Assembly: GCF_000526375.1 (NCBI RefSeq)
Contig: NZ_JAFY01000007.1
Span: 868,001-932,000 of the forward strand
Source of the DNA: Aminiphilus circumscriptus DSM 16581
Lineage (GTDB): Bacteria > Synergistota > Synergistia > Synergistales > Aminiphilaceae
Length of the DNA: 64,000 nt
Direction of reading: 5' to 3'
Shown here: piece after piece, positions 33,364-39,512 of the stretch
Position numbering within the stretch: position 1 is the stretch's first letter
Layout of the letters: each line of letters opens with the position of its first letter
Position numbers and translations under genes: made by a program
The notes under the pieces: generated by a model
Database searches by the model: none
What the model was told of the DNA's origin: nothing
Seen by the model: the letters and a program-made list of their open reading frames with translations, nothing else

Positions 33364-34213
33364 CCATCCCCCTTGACGACCTTTCTGTCGCGAGCATTGA
33401 TATAAGCTGGTGAATGAGCCAGTCCGGAGTGCTCGCCCCGGCGGCTACGCCGATGATGGCCTTGTCCGACAACCACCCCCGATCGAGTTCCTGAGCATGT
33501 TCGATCCAGAGCACGGGTGCCCCCGCGCCCTGGGCGATCTCGAAGAGCTTTTTCGTGTTGGCGCTGTTTCGTCCACCAATAATGATAATACCATCCACTT
33601 CCGCTGCCAAGCGACGCACCGAATCCTGCCGCGCCACGGTGGCTCCGCAGATGGTATTGAACACCCTGATCTCCCGCGCCTGGGGCACCACCCGGGCCAC
33701 AACACCCGCCAGGGTGGTCTCCTTCTGTGTAGTCTGACAGACGATGCCGATTTTGTCACGCCGCGGCGGCAGGGAGAATTCTTTCATGTCGTTCAGCACT
33801 TCCGCCTCGCCTGTGACATAGCCCCGGATGCCCTGCACCTCGGGGTGATCCTCGTCTCCGACGATCACCACGAAATATCCCTCCCGGGAGAGCAGTTCCG
33901 CCCGTTCCTGGGCGTTGCGCACGAAGGGGCAGGTGCCGTCCACGATCCGTCCAGCCCGTTTGCGCGCCGTCTCGAAGACCCGGGGAGACACGCCGTGAGC
34001 GCGGATGAACACCGTCGCCCCCTCGGGGATGGTGTCGGGATCCTCCACCACCACGAGCCCCACCGCCTCCAAGCGCGCGATCTCCTGCGGATTATGGATG
34101 GGACTGCCCAAGGCGAAGACCCGGCCACCGTCCCGCAGCGCGTTCTCAAGCTCCTCCACGGCCCTGCGCACACCGAAGCAAAGACCGGTAGGGTTTGCAA
34201 CGACAACCTTCAT
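33332..34213 (-). CDS. ispH: 4-hydroxy-3-methylbut-2-enyl diphosphate reductase
   Basis: Last step of the MEP isoprenoid pathway, giving IPP and DMAPP. 293 residues with the three [4Fe-4S] ligands Cys12, Cys95 and Cys189 (GLCFGVRRAV, DGTCPFV, NTICGAT), and substrate-site His40 and His123. GGNS-type residues appear in GGRNSANTKKL. It starts with an ATGA overlap with miaA and its end overlaps rpsA, so the three genes share a transcript. Confidence 0.95.
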   Translation of the reverse strand: MKVVVANPTGLCFGVRRAVEELENALRDGGRVFALGSPIHNPQEIARLEAVGLVVVEDPDTIPEGATVFIRAHGVSPRVFETARKRAGRIVDGTCPFVRNAQERAELLSREGYFVVIVGDEDHPEVQGIRGYVTGEAEVLNDMKEFSLPPRRDKIGIVCQTTQKETTLAGVVARVVPQAREIRVFNTICGATVARQDSVRRLAAEVDGIIIIGGRNSANTKKLFEIAQGAGAPVLWIEHAQELDRGWLSDKAIIGVAAGASTPDWLIHQLISMLATERSSRGMDGNGGAREQR

Positions 34214-35244
34214 GCGCCCTCCCGAACTGCGCCGGGATCTCCTCCGGCGTTTTTTCCGGAATGCCCCGCGAGATGTCTTCCACAGGATTCCAGAATTGTA
34301 GCATAAGAAGATTCCTCCAAAACATGCGATGCATCATACCACAAGACCGGTGAAAATTTGCGGAACCACGTCATCTGTCTTCGTGAAAAAGCCCGGGTCG
34401 CCGCAGCGTCTCCGTTCATCGCCTCCTCGAACGTGCACTCCCCCCGGTGGTACGCCACCAGTTCCCGGTAGCCGAATCCCTGCAGGGCGGGCATGCTCTC
34501 GTCGAAGCCGTGTTCGAGGAGCCACGCCACCTCCTCCGGAAATCCCGAGGAGAACTGTCTGCGCACCCGCTCGTTGATCCGCCGGTACAGCTCCTCCCGG
34601 GAGCGGAGCAGACCAATGTAGAGCACCGCGTAGGGCGCGGCGGAAAGCGCTCCCTTCCGGTAGGTCTCCGTGGCAGGGCGCCCGGTCAGCTCGAAGAGTT
34701 CCAGGGCGCGGACGACTCGCCGCAGATCCCTGGGGTGGATCCGCGCCGCCGACGGGGGATCCAGCTCCGCGAGGTGCCGGTGCAGCGCCTCTCTCCCGAT
34801 CCGGGCCGCCTCGTCCTCCAAGCGCCGCCGCACTTCCCAGCTCCTGGGCAAATCCTCCGTGAGAATGCTGTCCAGGAGCGCCCTGTAGTAGAAGGGCGTG
34901 CCTCCCACCAGCAAAGGGACCCGTCCCCGAGCCCGGAGACGGGAGATCGCCGCCCCCGCCGCCGCGGCGAACTCCGCCGCAGAATAAGGCTCGTCCGGGT
35001 CCGCCACGTCGAGGAGGTGGTGCACGATGCGGCGGCGCATCTCCGGCGACGCCTTGTCGGTTCCCACATCCATGTAGCGGTAGACCTGCCGGGAGTCCAC
35101 GGAGAGAATCTCCGCACCCAGGTCCTCCGCAAGGCGGAAGCTGAACTCGGTCTTGCCCACTGCGGTGGGGCCGATGATCGCCACCAGCGACACCGTGTCG
35201 ATGCCGAAGCGATCCCCGAATGTTTTTTTCGTCTTTTCCGTCAT
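34210..35244 (-). CDS. miaA: tRNA dimethylallyltransferase
   Basis: Transfers the dimethylallyl group to A37 of tRNAs reading UNN codons. 344 residues; P-loop GPTAVGKT (25-32), SVDSRQVYRYMDVGTDK and GGTPFYYRALLDSI are family motifs. It consumes DMAPP, the product of the adjacent IspH. The ATG at 35244 is seven bases after GAGGAG. It is the first gene of the long leftward array reaching the sigma factor at 21964. The C-terminal 25 residues are Gly/Arg-rich and vary in the family. Confidence 0.94.
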   Translation of the reverse strand: MTEKTKKTFGDRFGIDTVSLVAIIGPTAVGKTEFSFRLAEDLGAEILSVDSRQVYRYMDVGTDKASPEMRRRIVHHLLDVADPDEPYSAAEFAAAAGAAISRLRARGRVPLLVGGTPFYYRALLDSILTEDLPRSWEVRRRLEDEAARIGREALHRHLAELDPPSAARIHPRDLRRVVRALELFELTGRPATETYRKGALSAAPYAVLYIGLLRSREELYRRINERVRRQFSSGFPEEVAWLLEHGFDESMPALQGFGYRELVAYHRGECTFEEAMNGDAAATRAFSRRQMTWFRKFSPVLWYDASHVLEESSYATILESCGRHLAGHSGKNAGGDPGAVREGA

Positions 35245-35781
35245 GACGCGTCTCCTCGCTTCCATTCCGAGAGGCACGGCAAAGGCGCAGCCTTCCCGGT
35301 GACACTGTATTGTACCATCCGAAACCCCTCCACCGGACCGCCTTTCTCAGATACCTCCGCTCCTCCGAAAAGCTGGCAAAGCACCCCTCGGAAATGCCGA
35401 ACACCGGAACGATCTTTTCACAGGGCATAACGCACACGACGGCTCCGGGAGCACGTATGCGCTCTTCTCGGAGACAGAGTCGCCGTCCTCCGAAGGCTCC
35501 CTTTCCTCCAGTGGCTTTCCGCTGCGGTGCCCCGACTTGTGCTAAACTGAAAAGGTAAAACAACCTTCTCCGGGAAAACGGTTCGCCTGTCGCACATCGT
35601 GTCTTTTCACGGCCGTGCGTGGATATGCGAGGGACGTGCGACAGCCCGTTCCCCGGAAGATACCCCACCGTAGCGATCCGAACAAATAGGCCGTTCCGGG
35701 GAGTTCCGGACCAATCCAGGGCGAAAACGCGGAAAATTCGACGGAGAGAGAACGCAGGGAAGCAAAGAGGAGGAATGAACC
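35245..35781. other. Intergenic region between divergent miaA and hemerythrin genes
   Basis: 537 bp without a credible gene; reading frames here have GC-driven composition and no ribosome binding sites. It should hold the promoter of the whole miaA-to-sigma-factor array on one side and of the hemerythrin-cheC-cheD operon on the other. TACAAT occurs on the minus strand near 35315 and TAAACT on the plus strand near 35545, both without a convincing -35 box. I could not fit a known riboswitch. Confidence 0.5.
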
Positions 35782-36174
35782 ATGGGAGTCGCATGGAGCG
35801 ACGATCTCGCCATCGGCATCGGCATCATCGACGATCAGCACCGGAAGTTGATCGAGCGCATCGCCGCCTTTTCCGAGGCGGTGGAGCGGAAGGAGGTGGA
35901 CCAGATCGACGAGACCGTGAACTACCTCGTCGGCTACGCCATCCAACACTTCGGCGCGGAGGAACTGCTCATGATCCGCAATTGCTACGACGAGTTCGAC
36001 GCGCACCGGGATGAGCACAGCTGGTTCATCAAGGAGGTCGGCCGGGTTCACCGGAACCTGGTGGAGGGAGCACTCTCTCCAGAGCGCATCACCGAGCTGC
36101 GGGACATGCTGGTCCGATGGACGCTGGAGCACATCAGCGTCAAGGATCGGCGGATCGCACGATTTATCCGCTGA
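35782..36174 (+). CDS. Bacteriohemerythrin
   Basis: 130-residue four-helix oxygen-binding protein with a di-iron site. The full ligand set is visible: His20, His56, Glu60, His75, His79, His117 and Asp122 (DDQH, HFGAEE, HRDEH, LEHISVKD). In anaerobes such proteins bind, deliver or sense O2. AGAGGAGGA precedes the ATG. It is followed 17 bases later by cheC on the same strand, which suggests a signalling role. Confidence 0.92.
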   Translation: MGVAWSDDLAIGIGIIDDQHRKLIERIAAFSEAVERKEVDQIDETVNYLVGYAIQHFGAEELLMIRNCYDEFDAHRDEHSWFIKEVGRVHRNLVEGALSPERITELRDMLVRWTLEHISVKDRRIARFIR

Positions 36175-36191
36175 GGCGGGAGGGAACGGCC

Positions 36192-36833
36192 ATGAACGAC
36201 AAGACCGACGCGGGCCAACGCGACGCGTTCCGGACGGACGTGCTTCGGGAGATCTGCAACATCGGCGCGGGAAATGCCGCCACCGCCCTGTCCAAACTCA
36301 TGAACCGTCGCGTGGACATGCGCATCCTCCGGGTGCTTGCCCTGCCCTTCAACGACATCGTGGAATACGCCGGCGGCGCCGAGAACATCGTCGCCGCCGT
36401 GTTTGCCCGCTTCGAGGGCTCCCTGTCGGGCAACGTGCTCTTCGCCGCGGACGAACAGGAAGCCAGGCACCTGATTCTCGCCCTCACGGGAACGGAACAG
36501 GAGGGGTTCTCTCCTCTGGCCTGCTCGGTGATCCAGGAGATCGGTAACATCCTCATCGGCTCCTACCTGACGGCGCTCTCGGATTTCCTCGGAATGGAGC
36601 TGCGCCCCACCGTGCCATCCCTCGCGGTAGACATGGCGGGGGCCATCCTCAGCTTCAGCCTCATGGAGATCGGCCGGACCTCCGACACGGCCATCATGAT
36701 CGACGCCGGCCTGGGTACGGAGGACGCCCCTCCCAGCGAGGAGCGGACGAGCCGCATCTTCCTCCTCCCCGATCCCGAATCGTTCGAGACGATCTTCATC
36801 GCCCTTGGAGTCGCGGACCATGGCAAAGATTAA
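36192..36833 (+). CDS. cheC: CheC family CheY-P phosphatase
   Basis: 213 residues with both CheC/FliY active-site motifs: EICNIGAGNAATALS (Glu20, Asn23) and EIGNILIGSYLTAL (Glu116, Asn119). CheC dephosphorylates CheY-P and is stimulated by CheD. The ATG at 36192 follows GGGAACGG; a longer frame from 36117 lies inside the hemerythrin gene. Its last 14 bases overlap cheD. No CheA, CheY or receptor gene is in the window. Confidence 0.92.
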   Translation: MNDKTDAGQRDAFRTDVLREICNIGAGNAATALSKLMNRRVDMRILRVLALPFNDIVEYAGGAENIVAAVFARFEGSLSGNVLFAADEQEARHLILALTGTEQEGFSPLACSVIQEIGNILIGSYLTALSDFLGMELRPTVPSLAVDMAGAILSFSLMEIGRTSDTAIMIDAGLGTEDAPPSEERTSRIFLLPDPESFETIFIALGVADHGKD

Positions 36834-37305
36834 GGTCGGCATCGCGGAACTTGCCGTAGCCCGCTTCCCCGATTCGGTGACCACCCTCGGCCTCGGCTCC
36901 TGCGTCGGCGTGGCCATCTACGACGAGACAAAGCGAATCGCCGGACTGGTGCACATCATGCTCCCCTCCATGGATCTGGCAAAAGGGGCAGAGTTCAACC
37001 GCGCCAAATTCGCCGACTCGGGCATCCCCCAGTTGCTGGAGATGATGCTCCGGGCCGGAGCGCTCGGGCGACGCCTCACGGCGAAGATCGCCGGAGGAGC
37101 GCAGATGTTCAACTTCTCCGACAAGGAGAATTCGGTGCGCATTGGGTCGAGAAACGTGGAGGCCTGCAAGAGGACACTTCAAAACCTGGGAATTCCTCTT
37201 CGTGCGGAGGACACGGGGGGCAGTTTCGGACGCACCGTGGAGATTTTTTCCGAGACGGGGCTCTACGAAATCCGCGCCGTCGGTAGGAACAAAAAGATCA
37301 TCTGA
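36820..37305 (+). CDS. cheD: CheD chemoreceptor glutamine deamidase
   Basis: 161 residues. Catalytic Cys28 and His45 lie in LGSCVGV and LVHIMLP, with the third active-site region DTGGSFGR. CheD deamidates receptor glutamines and, bound to CheC, raises its phosphatase activity; co-transcription with an overlapping start agrees with that partnership. The overlap suggests translational coupling. Confidence 0.93.
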   Translation: MAKIKVGIAELAVARFPDSVTTLGLGSCVGVAIYDETKRIAGLVHIMLPSMDLAKGAEFNRAKFADSGIPQLLEMMLRAGALGRRLTAKIAGGAQMFNFSDKENSVRIGSRNVEACKRTLQNLGIPLRAEDTGGSFGRTVEIFSETGLYEIRAVGRNKKII

Positions 37306-37341
37306 ACCCGGAAATCCGTCCCGCACTCCCGAACACGCCGG

Positions 37342-37366
37342 AGCCGGAGAGCACCTTCTCCGGGCT
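37342..37366 (+). terminator. Probable terminator after cheD
   Basis: Stem AGCCGGAGA (37342-37350) with TCTCCGGGCT (37357-37366), one bulged G, followed by GGACTCTTCTCCC. It lies 37 bases after the cheD stop in the region convergent with mutL. No long U-tract. Confidence 0.45.
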
Positions 37367-37604
37367 GGACTCTTCTCCCGGCTCCCAAGCATGGCAGCAG
37401 AACCCCTTCGTGCAGTGGCATCGTCGTCAGGCGTGCTCCCGAACTCCAAAGCATTTCGAAAGCCGCGCAGCGGCTACGAACACCAGTGTCGTTTCACGCG
37501 ACACACCGCACGGGGAGCCCTCTCTCCGGATCTCGAAGGGGCTTCCGCCCCCACCTCCCGGATCACCGGGAAGGAACGTTCCCGCCCCAGGATCCCGGAG
37601 AACA

Positions 37605-39512
37605 TCACGCCCTTCCGAAAAAGCGCTCCAGAGCGAAACGGGAGAGGCGCAGCAGGGTGGGGCGTCCGTGGGGACATGTCTCGGGCTCTTCGCAGGCAAA
37701 AAGCGCATCGAGCAGGGCGAAGAGTTCCCGTTCGTCCAGGACATCACCGAGCGTGACCGAGCGTTTGCAGGCCATGGTGGCCCAGACGCGCCACAGGGGC
37801 GAGCACGGATCTCCCCCCCCTCCGTCTTCCTCCGCCGCGTCCAGGGCCTCCAGCGTCCCCCGAAGCAGTGGAACCGGCGGCACTCCCTCGTCCCCGAGGC
37901 AGAAGGGCACCTCCGCGAGCAGTAGCACTCCCTCGTCGTGCAGAAAGGCAAACCCCAGCTCCTCCAGGGCTTCCCGGTGCTCCTCAGCCCGCAGCGCCAG
38001 CGACGGCGGCAGCGCGGGCGGCAGGGCCAGGGGCTGCCGCCGGGTTCCCGCCCGGGCGAGACGGCGGATCTTTTCGTAGTGAACCCGCTCCTGTGCGGCG
38101 TGGGGGTCCACCAGCAAAAGCCCATCCTGGTCCTCCACCAGCACGTACCCGGCCCGCATACGCCCCAGAAGGGAAAACCGCCCCGCCTCCGCCGGAGGAA
38201 GGGAACTGGGCTTTTTCGATTCGGATTGCTCCGCCCAATGCCCTTCCGGTTCTTCCAACTCCGGCTTCCGCTCCGGGAAAAGACCCGGGGCGGACTCCAC
38301 CGGAAGGGAAAGGAGATGGCCCGCAACGGGCGAAGCCACCCGGAACCGCTCCGGGACCTCCCTGTCGGAACGTCTCACACCTTCTCCCTGGCCAAAGCCG
38401 GAATAGGGGTCGTCGTACCACCGCCACGGGGAGTGCGTCGCACCATCCTCGTTTCGGAGTCCCTTTCGGAACACATCCGCCGTCGAGCTTTTGGGAAAAG
38501 CCCTTTCCGCGTTCGTCCCCGAAACCCATTCCGCCCCACCGTCGAGGGGAACCTCCGGAGCGAATCGGAAACCCTCGGCAGCGCTCCGGAGCAGGCGGAA
38601 TACCTGCCCGGCATTGCGGAAGCGCACCTCCGTCTTCGCGGGATGGATGTTCACGTCCACCTCTTCCGGAGGTAATGACAGAAGAACCAGCCAGTTACCG
38701 CCACCCCCTTGGGCGAGGGCGGCCCGGACGGCTCTGTCGGCAAAGCGGCGCCCGTTCACGAAGGAAATCACCTCCGCCCGGGAAGCTCCCGGCAGGGGCT
38801 GGAACCACAGCTCCGCCGCGGAGGAATCCATGCGGAGACGGCGCATCCGCAGCGGCGGCGAGGGACCCCAGATCTGTCCGAGCAGAAGATCCCGCCGCCC
38901 GTCTCCGGAGGAGGCGAAGAGGCGCCGTCCGTCGGAGAAGAGAAGGAACGACACGCCGGGATAGGCGAGGGCGTACTCCCGAAGGACCGTGGCGACCCGG
39001 CGGACCTCTCCCGCAGCGCTCTTGAGAAACTTGCGCCGGGCGGGGAGATTGAAGAAAAGATCCTCCACCTGCACCCGTGTTCCCTCGGGGCAGGATACCT
39101 CTCCCTCGAAGAGGATCTTTCCCTCGGCGATACGGAGAATACCCCCCTCTCCGGATCGGCCGCGCTCGCGGCTCCGGATCTCCAGCCGCGCCACCGCAGC
39201 CAGACTGGCCAGAGCTTCTCCCCGGTAGCCAAGGGTGGCAATGCGCTCCAGGTCGTCCACGGTGGTGAGCTTGCTCGTGGCGTAGCGCTCCACCGCGAGA
39301 GGAAGTTCCTCCCGGGGAATGCCCAGACCATCGTCCTCCACCACGAGGGAGCGCCGCCCTCCCTCCTCAAGAAAGACGGCAATCCGCGTCGCCGCTGCAT
39401 CGAGAGCGTTTTCGAGAAGCTCCTTCACCGCCGAGGCGGGGCGTTCGATGACCTCTCCCGCGGCGACCCTGGAGGCCACCAGCGCCTCCAGTCTGCGAAT
39501 CGCGACCCTCAT
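37605..39512 (-). CDS. mutL: DNA mismatch repair protein MutL, endonuclease-type
   Basis: 635 residues. The GHKL ATPase domain has VASRVAAGEVIERPASAVKE, ELLENALDA and TLGYRGEAL, followed by GTRVQVEDLFFNLPAR and NIHPAKTEVRF. The C-terminal domain carries the metal-binding motif as DPHAAQERVHYE (canonical DQHAx2Ex4E, with Pro for Gln), plus ACKRSV and CPHGRPT. It is therefore the nicking type found in bacteria without MutH. The linker (about 330-440) is Pro/Glu-rich. The start overlaps the mutS stop (ATGA). Confidence 0.95.
   Translation of the reverse strand: MRVAIRRLEALVASRVAAGEVIERPASAVKELLENALDAAATRIAVFLEEGGRRSLVVEDDGLGIPREELPLAVERYATSKLTTVDDLERIATLGYRGEALASLAAVARLEIRSRERGRSGEGGILRIAEGKILFEGEVSCPEGTRVQVEDLFFNLPARRKFLKSAAGEVRRVATVLREYALAYPGVSFLLFSDGRRLFASSGDGRRDLLLGQIWGPSPPLRMRRLRMDSSAAELWFQPLPGASRAEVISFVNGRRFADRAVRAALAQGGGGNWLVLLSLPPEEVDVNIHPAKTEVRFRNAGQVFRLLRSAAEGFRFAPEVPLDGGAEWVSGTNAERAFPKSSTADVFRKGLRNEDGATHSPWRWYDDPYSGFGQGEGVRRSDREVPERFRVASPVAGHLLSLPVESAPGLFPERKPELEEPEGHWAEQSESKKPSSLPPAEAGRFSLLGRMRAGYVLVEDQDGLLLVDPHAAQERVHYEKIRRLARAGTRRQPLALPPALPPSLALRAEEHREALEELGFAFLHDEGVLLLAEVPFCLGDEGVPPVPLLRGTLEALDAAEEDGGGGDPCSPLWRVWATMACKRSVTLGDVLDERELFALLDALFACEEPETCPHGRPTLLRLSRFALERFFGRA

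What the first reader, a model, noticed from the sequence alone, without database searches (positions are those of the whole stretch)
35782..37305. Hemerythrin-CheC-CheD island: a possible compact oxygen-response module
A full-ligand bacteriohemerythrin is co-directional with cheC and cheD at 17-base and overlapping spacing, with no other chemotaxis gene around. In an anaerobe an O2-binding protein linked to a CheY-P phosphatase and a receptor deamidase suggests oxygen-dependent adaptation of taxis or pilus motility.
Basis: inference. Interest (0 to 1): 0.55.

Follow-up and report, generated by a model that had tools for sequence, protein, structure and literature searches.

The report
Conserved hemerythrin–CheC–CheD chemotaxis operon
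A small oxygen-binding protein is encoded as a tight three-gene unit with a second copy of two chemotaxis-adaptation proteins, and the same unit recurs in two distant groups of anaerobic bacteria, which suggests that these cells feed oxygen information into the adaptation arm of their chemotaxis system.

Summary
Window 35782-37305 (+) holds a full-ligand single-domain bacteriohemerythrin (Hr), cheC 17 bp downstream and cheD overlapping cheC by 14 bp. It is the only bacteriohemerythrin in this Synergistota genome, and this CheC-CheD pair is a second one: the main pair sits with cheB-cheA and a fliA-like gene elsewhere.

The trio is an old, mobile unit, not a chance arrangement. Related Hrs occur in 11 of 185 Synergistota genomes and 7 of 9 Heliobacteriaceae; all 18 are followed by cheC-cheD in the same order. 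58 more distant Hr loci have no CheC/CheD beside them. Hr, CheC and CheD of the module each form one clade, separate from the hosts' main CheC/CheD. All genomes tested keep a main CheD (17 of 17) and a CheA (14 of 14). Metal ligands and catalytic residues are kept, and the Hr has a module-specific outward-facing stripe that looks like a docking surface.

Best reading: Hr senses O2 (or redox state) and modulates the CheC-CheD pair, an O2 input to the adaptation limb of chemotaxis supplied in trans. Functional coupling is strongly supported; O2 control of CheC/CheD and its direction are inferred. No paper linking hemerythrin to CheC/CheD turned up.

The parts
35782..36174 (+). Bacteriohemerythrin (Hr), 130 aa, full diiron ligand set H20/H56/E60/H75/H79/H117/D122
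   Evidence: ligands 17 of 17 module Hrs; AlphaFold model closest to DcrH-Hr
36192..36833 (+). Second CheC (CheY-P phosphatase family), two D/S-x3-E-x2-N sites
   Evidence: site 2 kept in 17 of 17, site 1 in 16 of 17; module clade 100/99
36820..37305 (+). Second CheD (receptor glutamine deamidase family), T22/C28/H45, GGAQMF CheC/receptor contact loop, module-specific C116
   Evidence: residues 17 of 17; C116 17 of 17 module, 0 of 48 other CheDs
36820..36833 (+). 14-bp cheC/cheD overlap, the same length in 16 of 17 module loci
35767..35774 (+). Ribosome-binding-site-like AGAGGAGG upstream of Hr
   Evidence: read from the sequence; similar purine runs upstream of most module Hrs
35278..35781 (.). 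Upstream intergenic region (divergent with miaA), presumed promoter region; no sigma-70-like or sigma-28-like site found on the + strand
34210..35277 (-). miaA, left flank of the inserted unit (true start probably near 35196)
   Evidence: TIGR00174; homology to relatives starts near residue 28
37605..39512 (-). mutL, right flank; mutL and miaA are directly adjacent in 15 of 19 relatives without the module
   Evidence: TIGR00585

Best explanation
The three genes are a stand-alone, horizontally spread 'oxygen input' unit for chemotaxis. A soluble bacteriohemerythrin binds O2 (or changes redox state) and, through a conserved face on its helices A and B, contacts the co-encoded CheC and/or CheD. 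This shifts how much CheD is free to bind chemoreceptors and activate CheA. The CheC-CheD pair keeps its CheY-P phosphatase and deamidase residues and its mutual contact residues, so it can plug into the host's single CheA/MCP array beside the main CheC-CheD. In an anaerobe the likely result is a reset of receptor-array activity when O2 appears, giving avoidance of O2 without a dedicated O2 chemoreceptor. Shown: gene order, co-inheritance, conserved residues, presence of a host chemotaxis system. Inferred: O2 binding, Hr-CheC/CheD contact, sign of the response.
For: Conserved trio in 11 of 185 Synergistota genomes and 7 of 9 Heliobacteriaceae; 0 of 58 other Hr loci are next to CheC/CheD. The cheC/cheD overlap is 14 bp in 16 of 17 loci; Hr stop to cheC start is -4 to +42 bp, with 4-bp stop/start overlaps in 6 of 17. 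The module's Hr (18 rows, 100/99), CheC (17 rows, 100/99) and CheD (17 rows, 94/99) are each one clade, apart from the main CheC/CheD. Every module genome tested has a further CheD (11 of 11 Synergistota; 6 of 6 heliobacteria) and CheA (14 of 14). Own genome: one CheA domain, 19 MCPs, and only one bacteriohemerythrin domain, so no Hr-MCP. Ligands and active-site residues kept. Nine Hr residues (G14, K22, N47, G51, Q55, L62, R66, N67, D70) are kept in at least 16 of 17 module Hrs and in at most 9 of 57 others; K22, N47, G51, Q55, L62 and R66 point away from the metal site by helical wheel. CheD C116 is 17 of 17 in the module, 0 of 48 elsewhere. Closest solved Hr is the O2-sensing domain of chemoreceptor DcrH. 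In B. subtilis, CheC-CheD binding, tightened by CheY-P, controls receptor-bound CheD (PMC3513319, passages).
Against: No direct evidence of O2 binding, Hr-CheC/CheD contact or co-transcription. No promoter-like site on the + strand and no sigma-28-like site linking the unit to motility regulation. 7 of 9 heliobacteria but only 11 of 185 Synergistota carry it, so it is dispensable for most anaerobic Synergistota. The module-specific residues could reflect common descent of one Hr clade rather than a docking site. One carrier (G133) has lost CheC site 1.
Confidence: 0.55

Rival explanations
1. Protective or buffering role. Hr scavenges O2 or holds iron locally to protect CheD's catalytic cysteine (and the module-specific C116) or the receptor array from oxidation; it does not signal.
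For: Hrs protect O2-labile enzymes in Campylobacter (PMC4257069, abstract in listing). CheD C28 and C116 are conserved thiols.
Against: The main CheD loci of the carriers examined have no Hr beside them. One small Hr per CheC-CheD operon gives little scavenging capacity. The module-specific surface stripe is not expected of a free scavenger.
Confidence: 0.17
2. The unit feeds a different output (type IV pili, c-di-GMP or another CheY-like regulator) rather than the flagellar array; CheC acts on another response regulator.
For: The unit lies away from the flagellar/che cluster; in Heliorestis a response regulator-GGDEF-EAL gene follows it.
Against: All 14 carriers tested have CheA and all 17 tested have a main CheD. 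CheD's known substrates are chemoreceptors. The GGDEF-EAL neighbour is not in the shared-neighbour groups.
Confidence: 0.15
3. Hr senses something other than O2 (NO, H2O2 or cell redox state through the diiron site), with the same CheC-CheD coupling.
For: Bacterial Hr domains also act as redox sensors (PMC9388753, abstract and passages).
Against: The closest solved relative, DcrH-Hr, has been studied as an O2 sensor; no sequence feature here separates the two.
Confidence: 0.2
4. Chance neighbours or mere co-regulation, with no molecular coupling.
For: Operons can group genes for co-expression only.
Against: 18 of 18 against 0 of 58; same order in two phyla at unrelated sites; each protein a separate clade.
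Confidence: 0.05

Closest known systems
DcrH of Desulfovibrio vulgaris (Hr domain fused to an MCP)
   Same: Hr domain with the same ligands, closest solved structure (2avk: 32% identity, TM 0.85); links O2 to chemotaxis in an anaerobe
   Different: There the Hr is the C-terminal domain of a receptor. Here it is a free 130-aa protein encoded with adaptation proteins, and this genome has no other bacteriohemerythrin domain.
CheC/CheD/CheY-P adaptation system of Bacillus subtilis and Thermotoga maritima
   Same: CheC with both phosphatase motifs, CheD with its triad and the GGA-MF loop; adjacent cheC-cheD; aligns to the 2F9Z complex
   Different: A second, separate CheC-CheD lineage with a hemerythrin as first gene; module CheD carries C116 in place of T/V
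[quoted passage not shown]
   Same: Hr used as an O2/redox input to a signalling enzyme (PMC9388753, passages)
   Different: Fusion proteins acting on c-di-GMP; no CheC/CheD
Bacteriohemerythrin genes near chemotaxis genes in Methylomonas denitrificans (bhr-77/-88)
   Same: bhr genes in a neighbourhood with chemotaxis genes, suggested O2 sensing (PMC12607906, passages)
   Different: CheD is not mentioned in that paper's text; aerobic methanotroph; not described there as a three-gene cassette

Membership tests
Bacteriohemerythrin (NF033749 / O2-binding Hr) | Profile match above curated cut-off | tested here: met
   96.0 bits against 84
Bacteriohemerythrin (NF033749 / O2-binding Hr) | Five His, one Glu, one Asp diiron ligands and four-helix fold | tested here: met
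   17 of 17; helices and DcrH-Hr match
Bacteriohemerythrin (NF033749 / O2-binding Hr) | Reversible O2 binding | not testable with these tools
   needs purified protein
CheC phosphatase | Pfam CheC repeats and D/S-x3-E-x2-N sites | tested here: met
   PF04509 two stretches; site 2 17/17, site 1 16/17
CheC phosphatase | NCBIfam equivalog cut-off (CheC_Thtogales) | tested here: not met
   151.6 bits against 250; by its name that model is for Thermotogales CheC
CheC phosphatase | CheY-P phosphatase activity | not testable with these tools
   needs assay
CheD deamidase | Pfam CheD and Thr/Cys/His triad (positions recalled, aligned to the T. maritima chain) | tested here: met
   PF03975; T22, C28, H45 17/17; alignment
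CheD deamidase | NCBIfam equivalog cut-offs | tested here: not met
   best 164.9 bits against 251 for PRK13490: divergent CheD
B. subtilis-type CheC/CheD/CheY-P adaptation system | CheC-CheD contact residues (CheD M-F of GGA-MF, CheC Asp at the interface) | tested here: met
   CheD M96/F97 and CheC D147 17/17; equivalence to B. subtilis M101/F102 and D149 inferred from motif and passages
B. subtilis-type CheC/CheD/CheY-P adaptation system | Host CheA and MCPs present | tested here: met
   CheA 14 of 14 carriers; 19 MCPs in own genome
B. subtilis-type CheC/CheD/CheY-P adaptation system | CheD binds receptors and CheY-P tightens CheC-CheD | not testable with these tools
   needs binding assays
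DcrH-type Hr chemoreceptor | Hr fused to an MCP signalling domain | tested here: not met
   stand-alone 130-aa ORF; only one bacteriohemerythrin domain (TIGR02481) in the genome

The most novel reading that the evidence does not exclude
A previously undescribed signalling route: a soluble hemerythrin acts in trans on the adaptation proteins CheC/CheD, so that O2 resets the whole chemoreceptor array through CheD availability instead of through a dedicated O2 receptor. It is packaged as a transferable three-gene cassette that moved between heliobacteria and Synergistota.
Probability: 0.42. Interest if true: 0.8.

Novelty: new variant of a known kind. Interest (0 to 1): 0.62.

Why it matters
Known O2 inputs to chemotaxis enter through receptors. 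A cassette that plugs an O2-binding protein into the CheC-CheD adaptation limb would be a new entry point, would explain why some bacteria keep a second CheC-CheD pair, and would be directly testable with purified proteins (CheC-CheD affinity with and without Hr and O2). It occurs in named, cultured strict anaerobes (Heliobacterium, Heliorestis), so experiments are possible.

Tried and rejected
Chance adjacency: rejected (18 of 18 against 0 of 58). Recent duplication of the host's main cheCD: rejected, the module CheC and CheD form their own clades. A fourth core gene: none; a shared downstream block of frames is found in 5 of the 11 extended neighbourhoods (L050-L053, L055; MatE where checked, in L051) and is absent from the window, L049, L057 and the three heliobacterial ones. 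Motility (sigma-28-like) promoter: no signal in 18 upstream regions (observed scores no better than shuffles); the sigma-70-like scan found nothing on the + strand. Plasmid vehicle: best CheC match on plasmids 39% identity, none close. An Hr-MCP in this genome: none. Literature: hemerythrin+CheC+CheD gives 1 irrelevant paper; bacteriohemerythrin+chemotaxis 13 papers; hemerythrin+heliobacteria 0; hemerythrin+DcrH+oxygen+chemotaxis 8; hemerythrin+Synergistetes 2 unrelated; in the 2022 Hr-sensor review and the 2026 aerotaxis review CheC occurs 0 times, and CheD 0 and 2 times, the latter not linked to hemerythrin. The held library lacks most subscription papers.

Rows dropped: G068 (35-residue Hr fragment at a contig end) was left out of the 11. 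In the CheC and CheD trees L077 was dropped as a duplicate of the G067 module, and L199 (G585) was not included; it is in the Hr tree only. L018 was checked for neighbours but is not in the Hr tree. Six divergent second CheDs (L164-L169) were left out of the residue comparison but kept in the tree. Fisher values treat related genomes as independent and are only indicative. Of 157 genomes with Hr matches only the 30 loci returned were checked for neighbours.

Full report
WHAT IS THERE. Window 35782-37305 on the + strand holds three co-directional genes. The first is a 130-aa single-domain bacteriohemerythrin (Hr; NF033749, 96 bits against a cut-off of 84). The second is a CheC (PF04509, two stretches), 17 bp downstream. 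The third is a CheD (PF03975) that overlaps cheC by 14 bp. miaA lies on the left and mutL on the right, both on the opposite strand.

GENOME CONTEXT. The window is part of a 3.22-Mb Synergistota genome. Its same-genus relative G001 appears to be 'Synergistaceae bacterium UBA5560', because a contig of 80,041 bases carries the same locus in both. The genome has one TIGR02481 bacteriohemerythrin domain, this one, 19 MCP signalling domains, one CheA dimerisation domain and two CheDs. The other CheC-CheD pair lies directly behind cheB and cheA and just before a sigma-70-family factor (fliA-like) and a FapA-type gene. The finding is therefore a second, separate CheC-CheD pair headed by a hemerythrin.

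CONSERVATION. In 185 Synergistota genomes, 11 have a full-length Hr at least 59% identical; one further fragment (G068) was dropped because it ends at a contig edge. The next Hrs are at most 33% identical by that search. All 11 are followed by CheC and then CheD; none of 20 more distant Hr loci is. A scan of genome contigs with the aligned Hrs returned 10 loci: 7 Synergistaceae MAGs and 3 heliobacteria (Heliorestis acidaminivorans, Heliobacterium mobile, H. chlorum). All 10 have the trio; they overlap the other counts. In the Heliobacteriaceae held, 7 of 9 genomes have it (neighbours), while 26 Hr loci from a wider sample around Heliorestis and 12 other Hr loci of that family have no CheC/CheD in the stretch held. 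In all: 18 of 18 against 0 of 58. Only the first 30 loci were checked.

OPERON ARCHITECTURE. In 17 loci examined all three genes share a strand. The cheC/cheD overlap is 14 bp in 16 and 8 bp in 1. The Hr-stop to cheC-start distance runs from -4 to +42 bp, with a 4-bp stop/start overlap in 6. Start codons were chosen by a script as those nearest the aligned start, so the exact Hr/cheC spacings could shift by alternative starts. This points to one transcript with translational coupling, but no RNA evidence is available.

EVOLUTION. The module CheCs (17) form one clade (bootstrap/SH-aLRT 100/99), as do the module CheDs (17; 94/99), both apart from the main-cluster CheC/CheD of the same genomes (for heliobacteria only the main CheD was in the set). 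The 18 module Hrs form one clade (100/99), whose nearest relatives in the set are two stand-alone heliobacterial Hrs; the Synergistota Hrs lie inside the heliobacterial ones. This fits origin in or near heliobacteria and transfer to Synergistota as a unit, though the Hr alignment is short and long branches were flagged, and the CheD tree splits the two phyla cleanly. Apart from the trio no neighbour is shared by all; the one cross-phylum match is a single ORF pair between L053 and L054, at different places. In the window's lineage the unit sits, in reverse orientation, between mutL and miaA, which are directly adjacent in 15 of 19 relatives without the module: an insertion site.

DEPENDENCE ON CHEMOTAXIS. 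Every carrier tested has a further CheD (11 of 11 Synergistota; 6 of 6 heliobacteria) and CheA (14 of 14). Among the 174 other Synergistota genomes 119 have CheD (Fisher one-sided p 0.018, not corrected for relatedness). The unit therefore adds to an existing chemotaxis system rather than replacing it.

RESIDUES. The seven diiron ligands are kept in 17 of 17 Hrs, CheC site 2 in 17 of 17 and site 1 in 16 of 17 (lost in G133), the CheD triad T22/C28/H45 in 17 of 17 (triad positions recalled; aligned with the T. maritima chain), CheD M96/F97 in 17 of 17 and CheC D147 in 17 of 17. In B. subtilis the matching CheD F102 and CheC D149 are needed for CheC-CheD binding, which matters more for taxis than either enzyme activity; CheY-P tightens CheC-CheD about seven-fold, from 3.95 to 0.55 uM (PMC3513319, passages read). 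The numbering match to B. subtilis is inferred.

MODULE-SPECIFIC FEATURES. Against 57 other Hrs, G14, K22, N47, G51, Q55, L62, R66, N67 and D70 are kept in at least 16 of 17 module Hrs and in at most 9 of 57 others. On helices A and B, K22, N47, G51, Q55, L62 and R66 point 100-160 degrees away from the ligand side by helical wheel, so they are not metal-site residues and could form a docking face. Module CheD has C116 in 17 of 17, against 0 of 48 other CheDs. The AlphaFold model of Hr (mean pLDDT 88.8) is closest to the Hr domain of the chemoreceptor DcrH (TM 0.80-0.88).

MECHANISM, STEP BY STEP. (1) Hr binds O2 or changes redox state: inferred from ligands and DcrH. (2) Hr contacts CheC or CheD: inferred from co-inheritance, gene coupling and the conserved outward face. 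(3) This changes the share of CheD bound to receptors, hence CheA activity: inferred from the B. subtilis system. (4) The cell avoids or adapts to O2: inferred. Confidence in the whole chain 0.55; in functional coupling of the three genes about 0.9.

LITERATURE. Searches for hemerythrin with CheC and CheD, with heliobacteria and with Synergistetes gave nothing relevant. Two reviews, of hemerythrin sensors (PMC9388753) and of aerotaxis (PMC13401364), searched by term, do not connect hemerythrin with CheC or CheD. A 2016 Hr survey lists Hr-MCP fusions as the commonest architecture of long Hr proteins (PMC4919030, passages). The combination seems undescribed in the held library, which lacks most subscription journals.

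VERDICT. Observation confirmed; interpretation partly supported and strengthened. It is a new variant of known parts: a portable hemerythrin-CheC-CheD cassette.

Noticed in passing
L013:10138-10719 (-) (own genome, C5 near 496254): A CheX/CheC-like protein (193 aa) lies about 0.7 kb from a dCache MCP gene (L013:7367-9403), so this genome has further CheC-family proteins outside both CheC-CheD pairs.
   Followed up: partly
L014:9605-10120 (+) (own genome, C5 near 540904): Another CheX/CheC-like protein of 171 aa.
   Followed up: partly
L164, L165, L166, L167, L168, L169 (G001, G002, G003, G043, G138, G137): A third, divergent CheD lineage (28-35% identical to the module CheD) with no CheC or Hr found in the stretch held; in G001 it lies some 5 kb from a second CheA.
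   Followed up: partly
L054:7610-9283 (+): In Heliorestis acidaminivorans a response regulator-GGDEF-EAL gene follows the module, a possible c-di-GMP link in that species.
   Followed up: no
window 34210-39512: The unit interrupts a mutL-miaA pair that is adjacent in 15 of 19 relatives, in reverse orientation.
   Followed up: yes
L201 and L202 (G185, G490): Stand-alone heliobacterial Hrs, about 42% identical to the module Hr, are its nearest non-module relatives in the set and candidate sources of the module Hr.
   Followed up: partly
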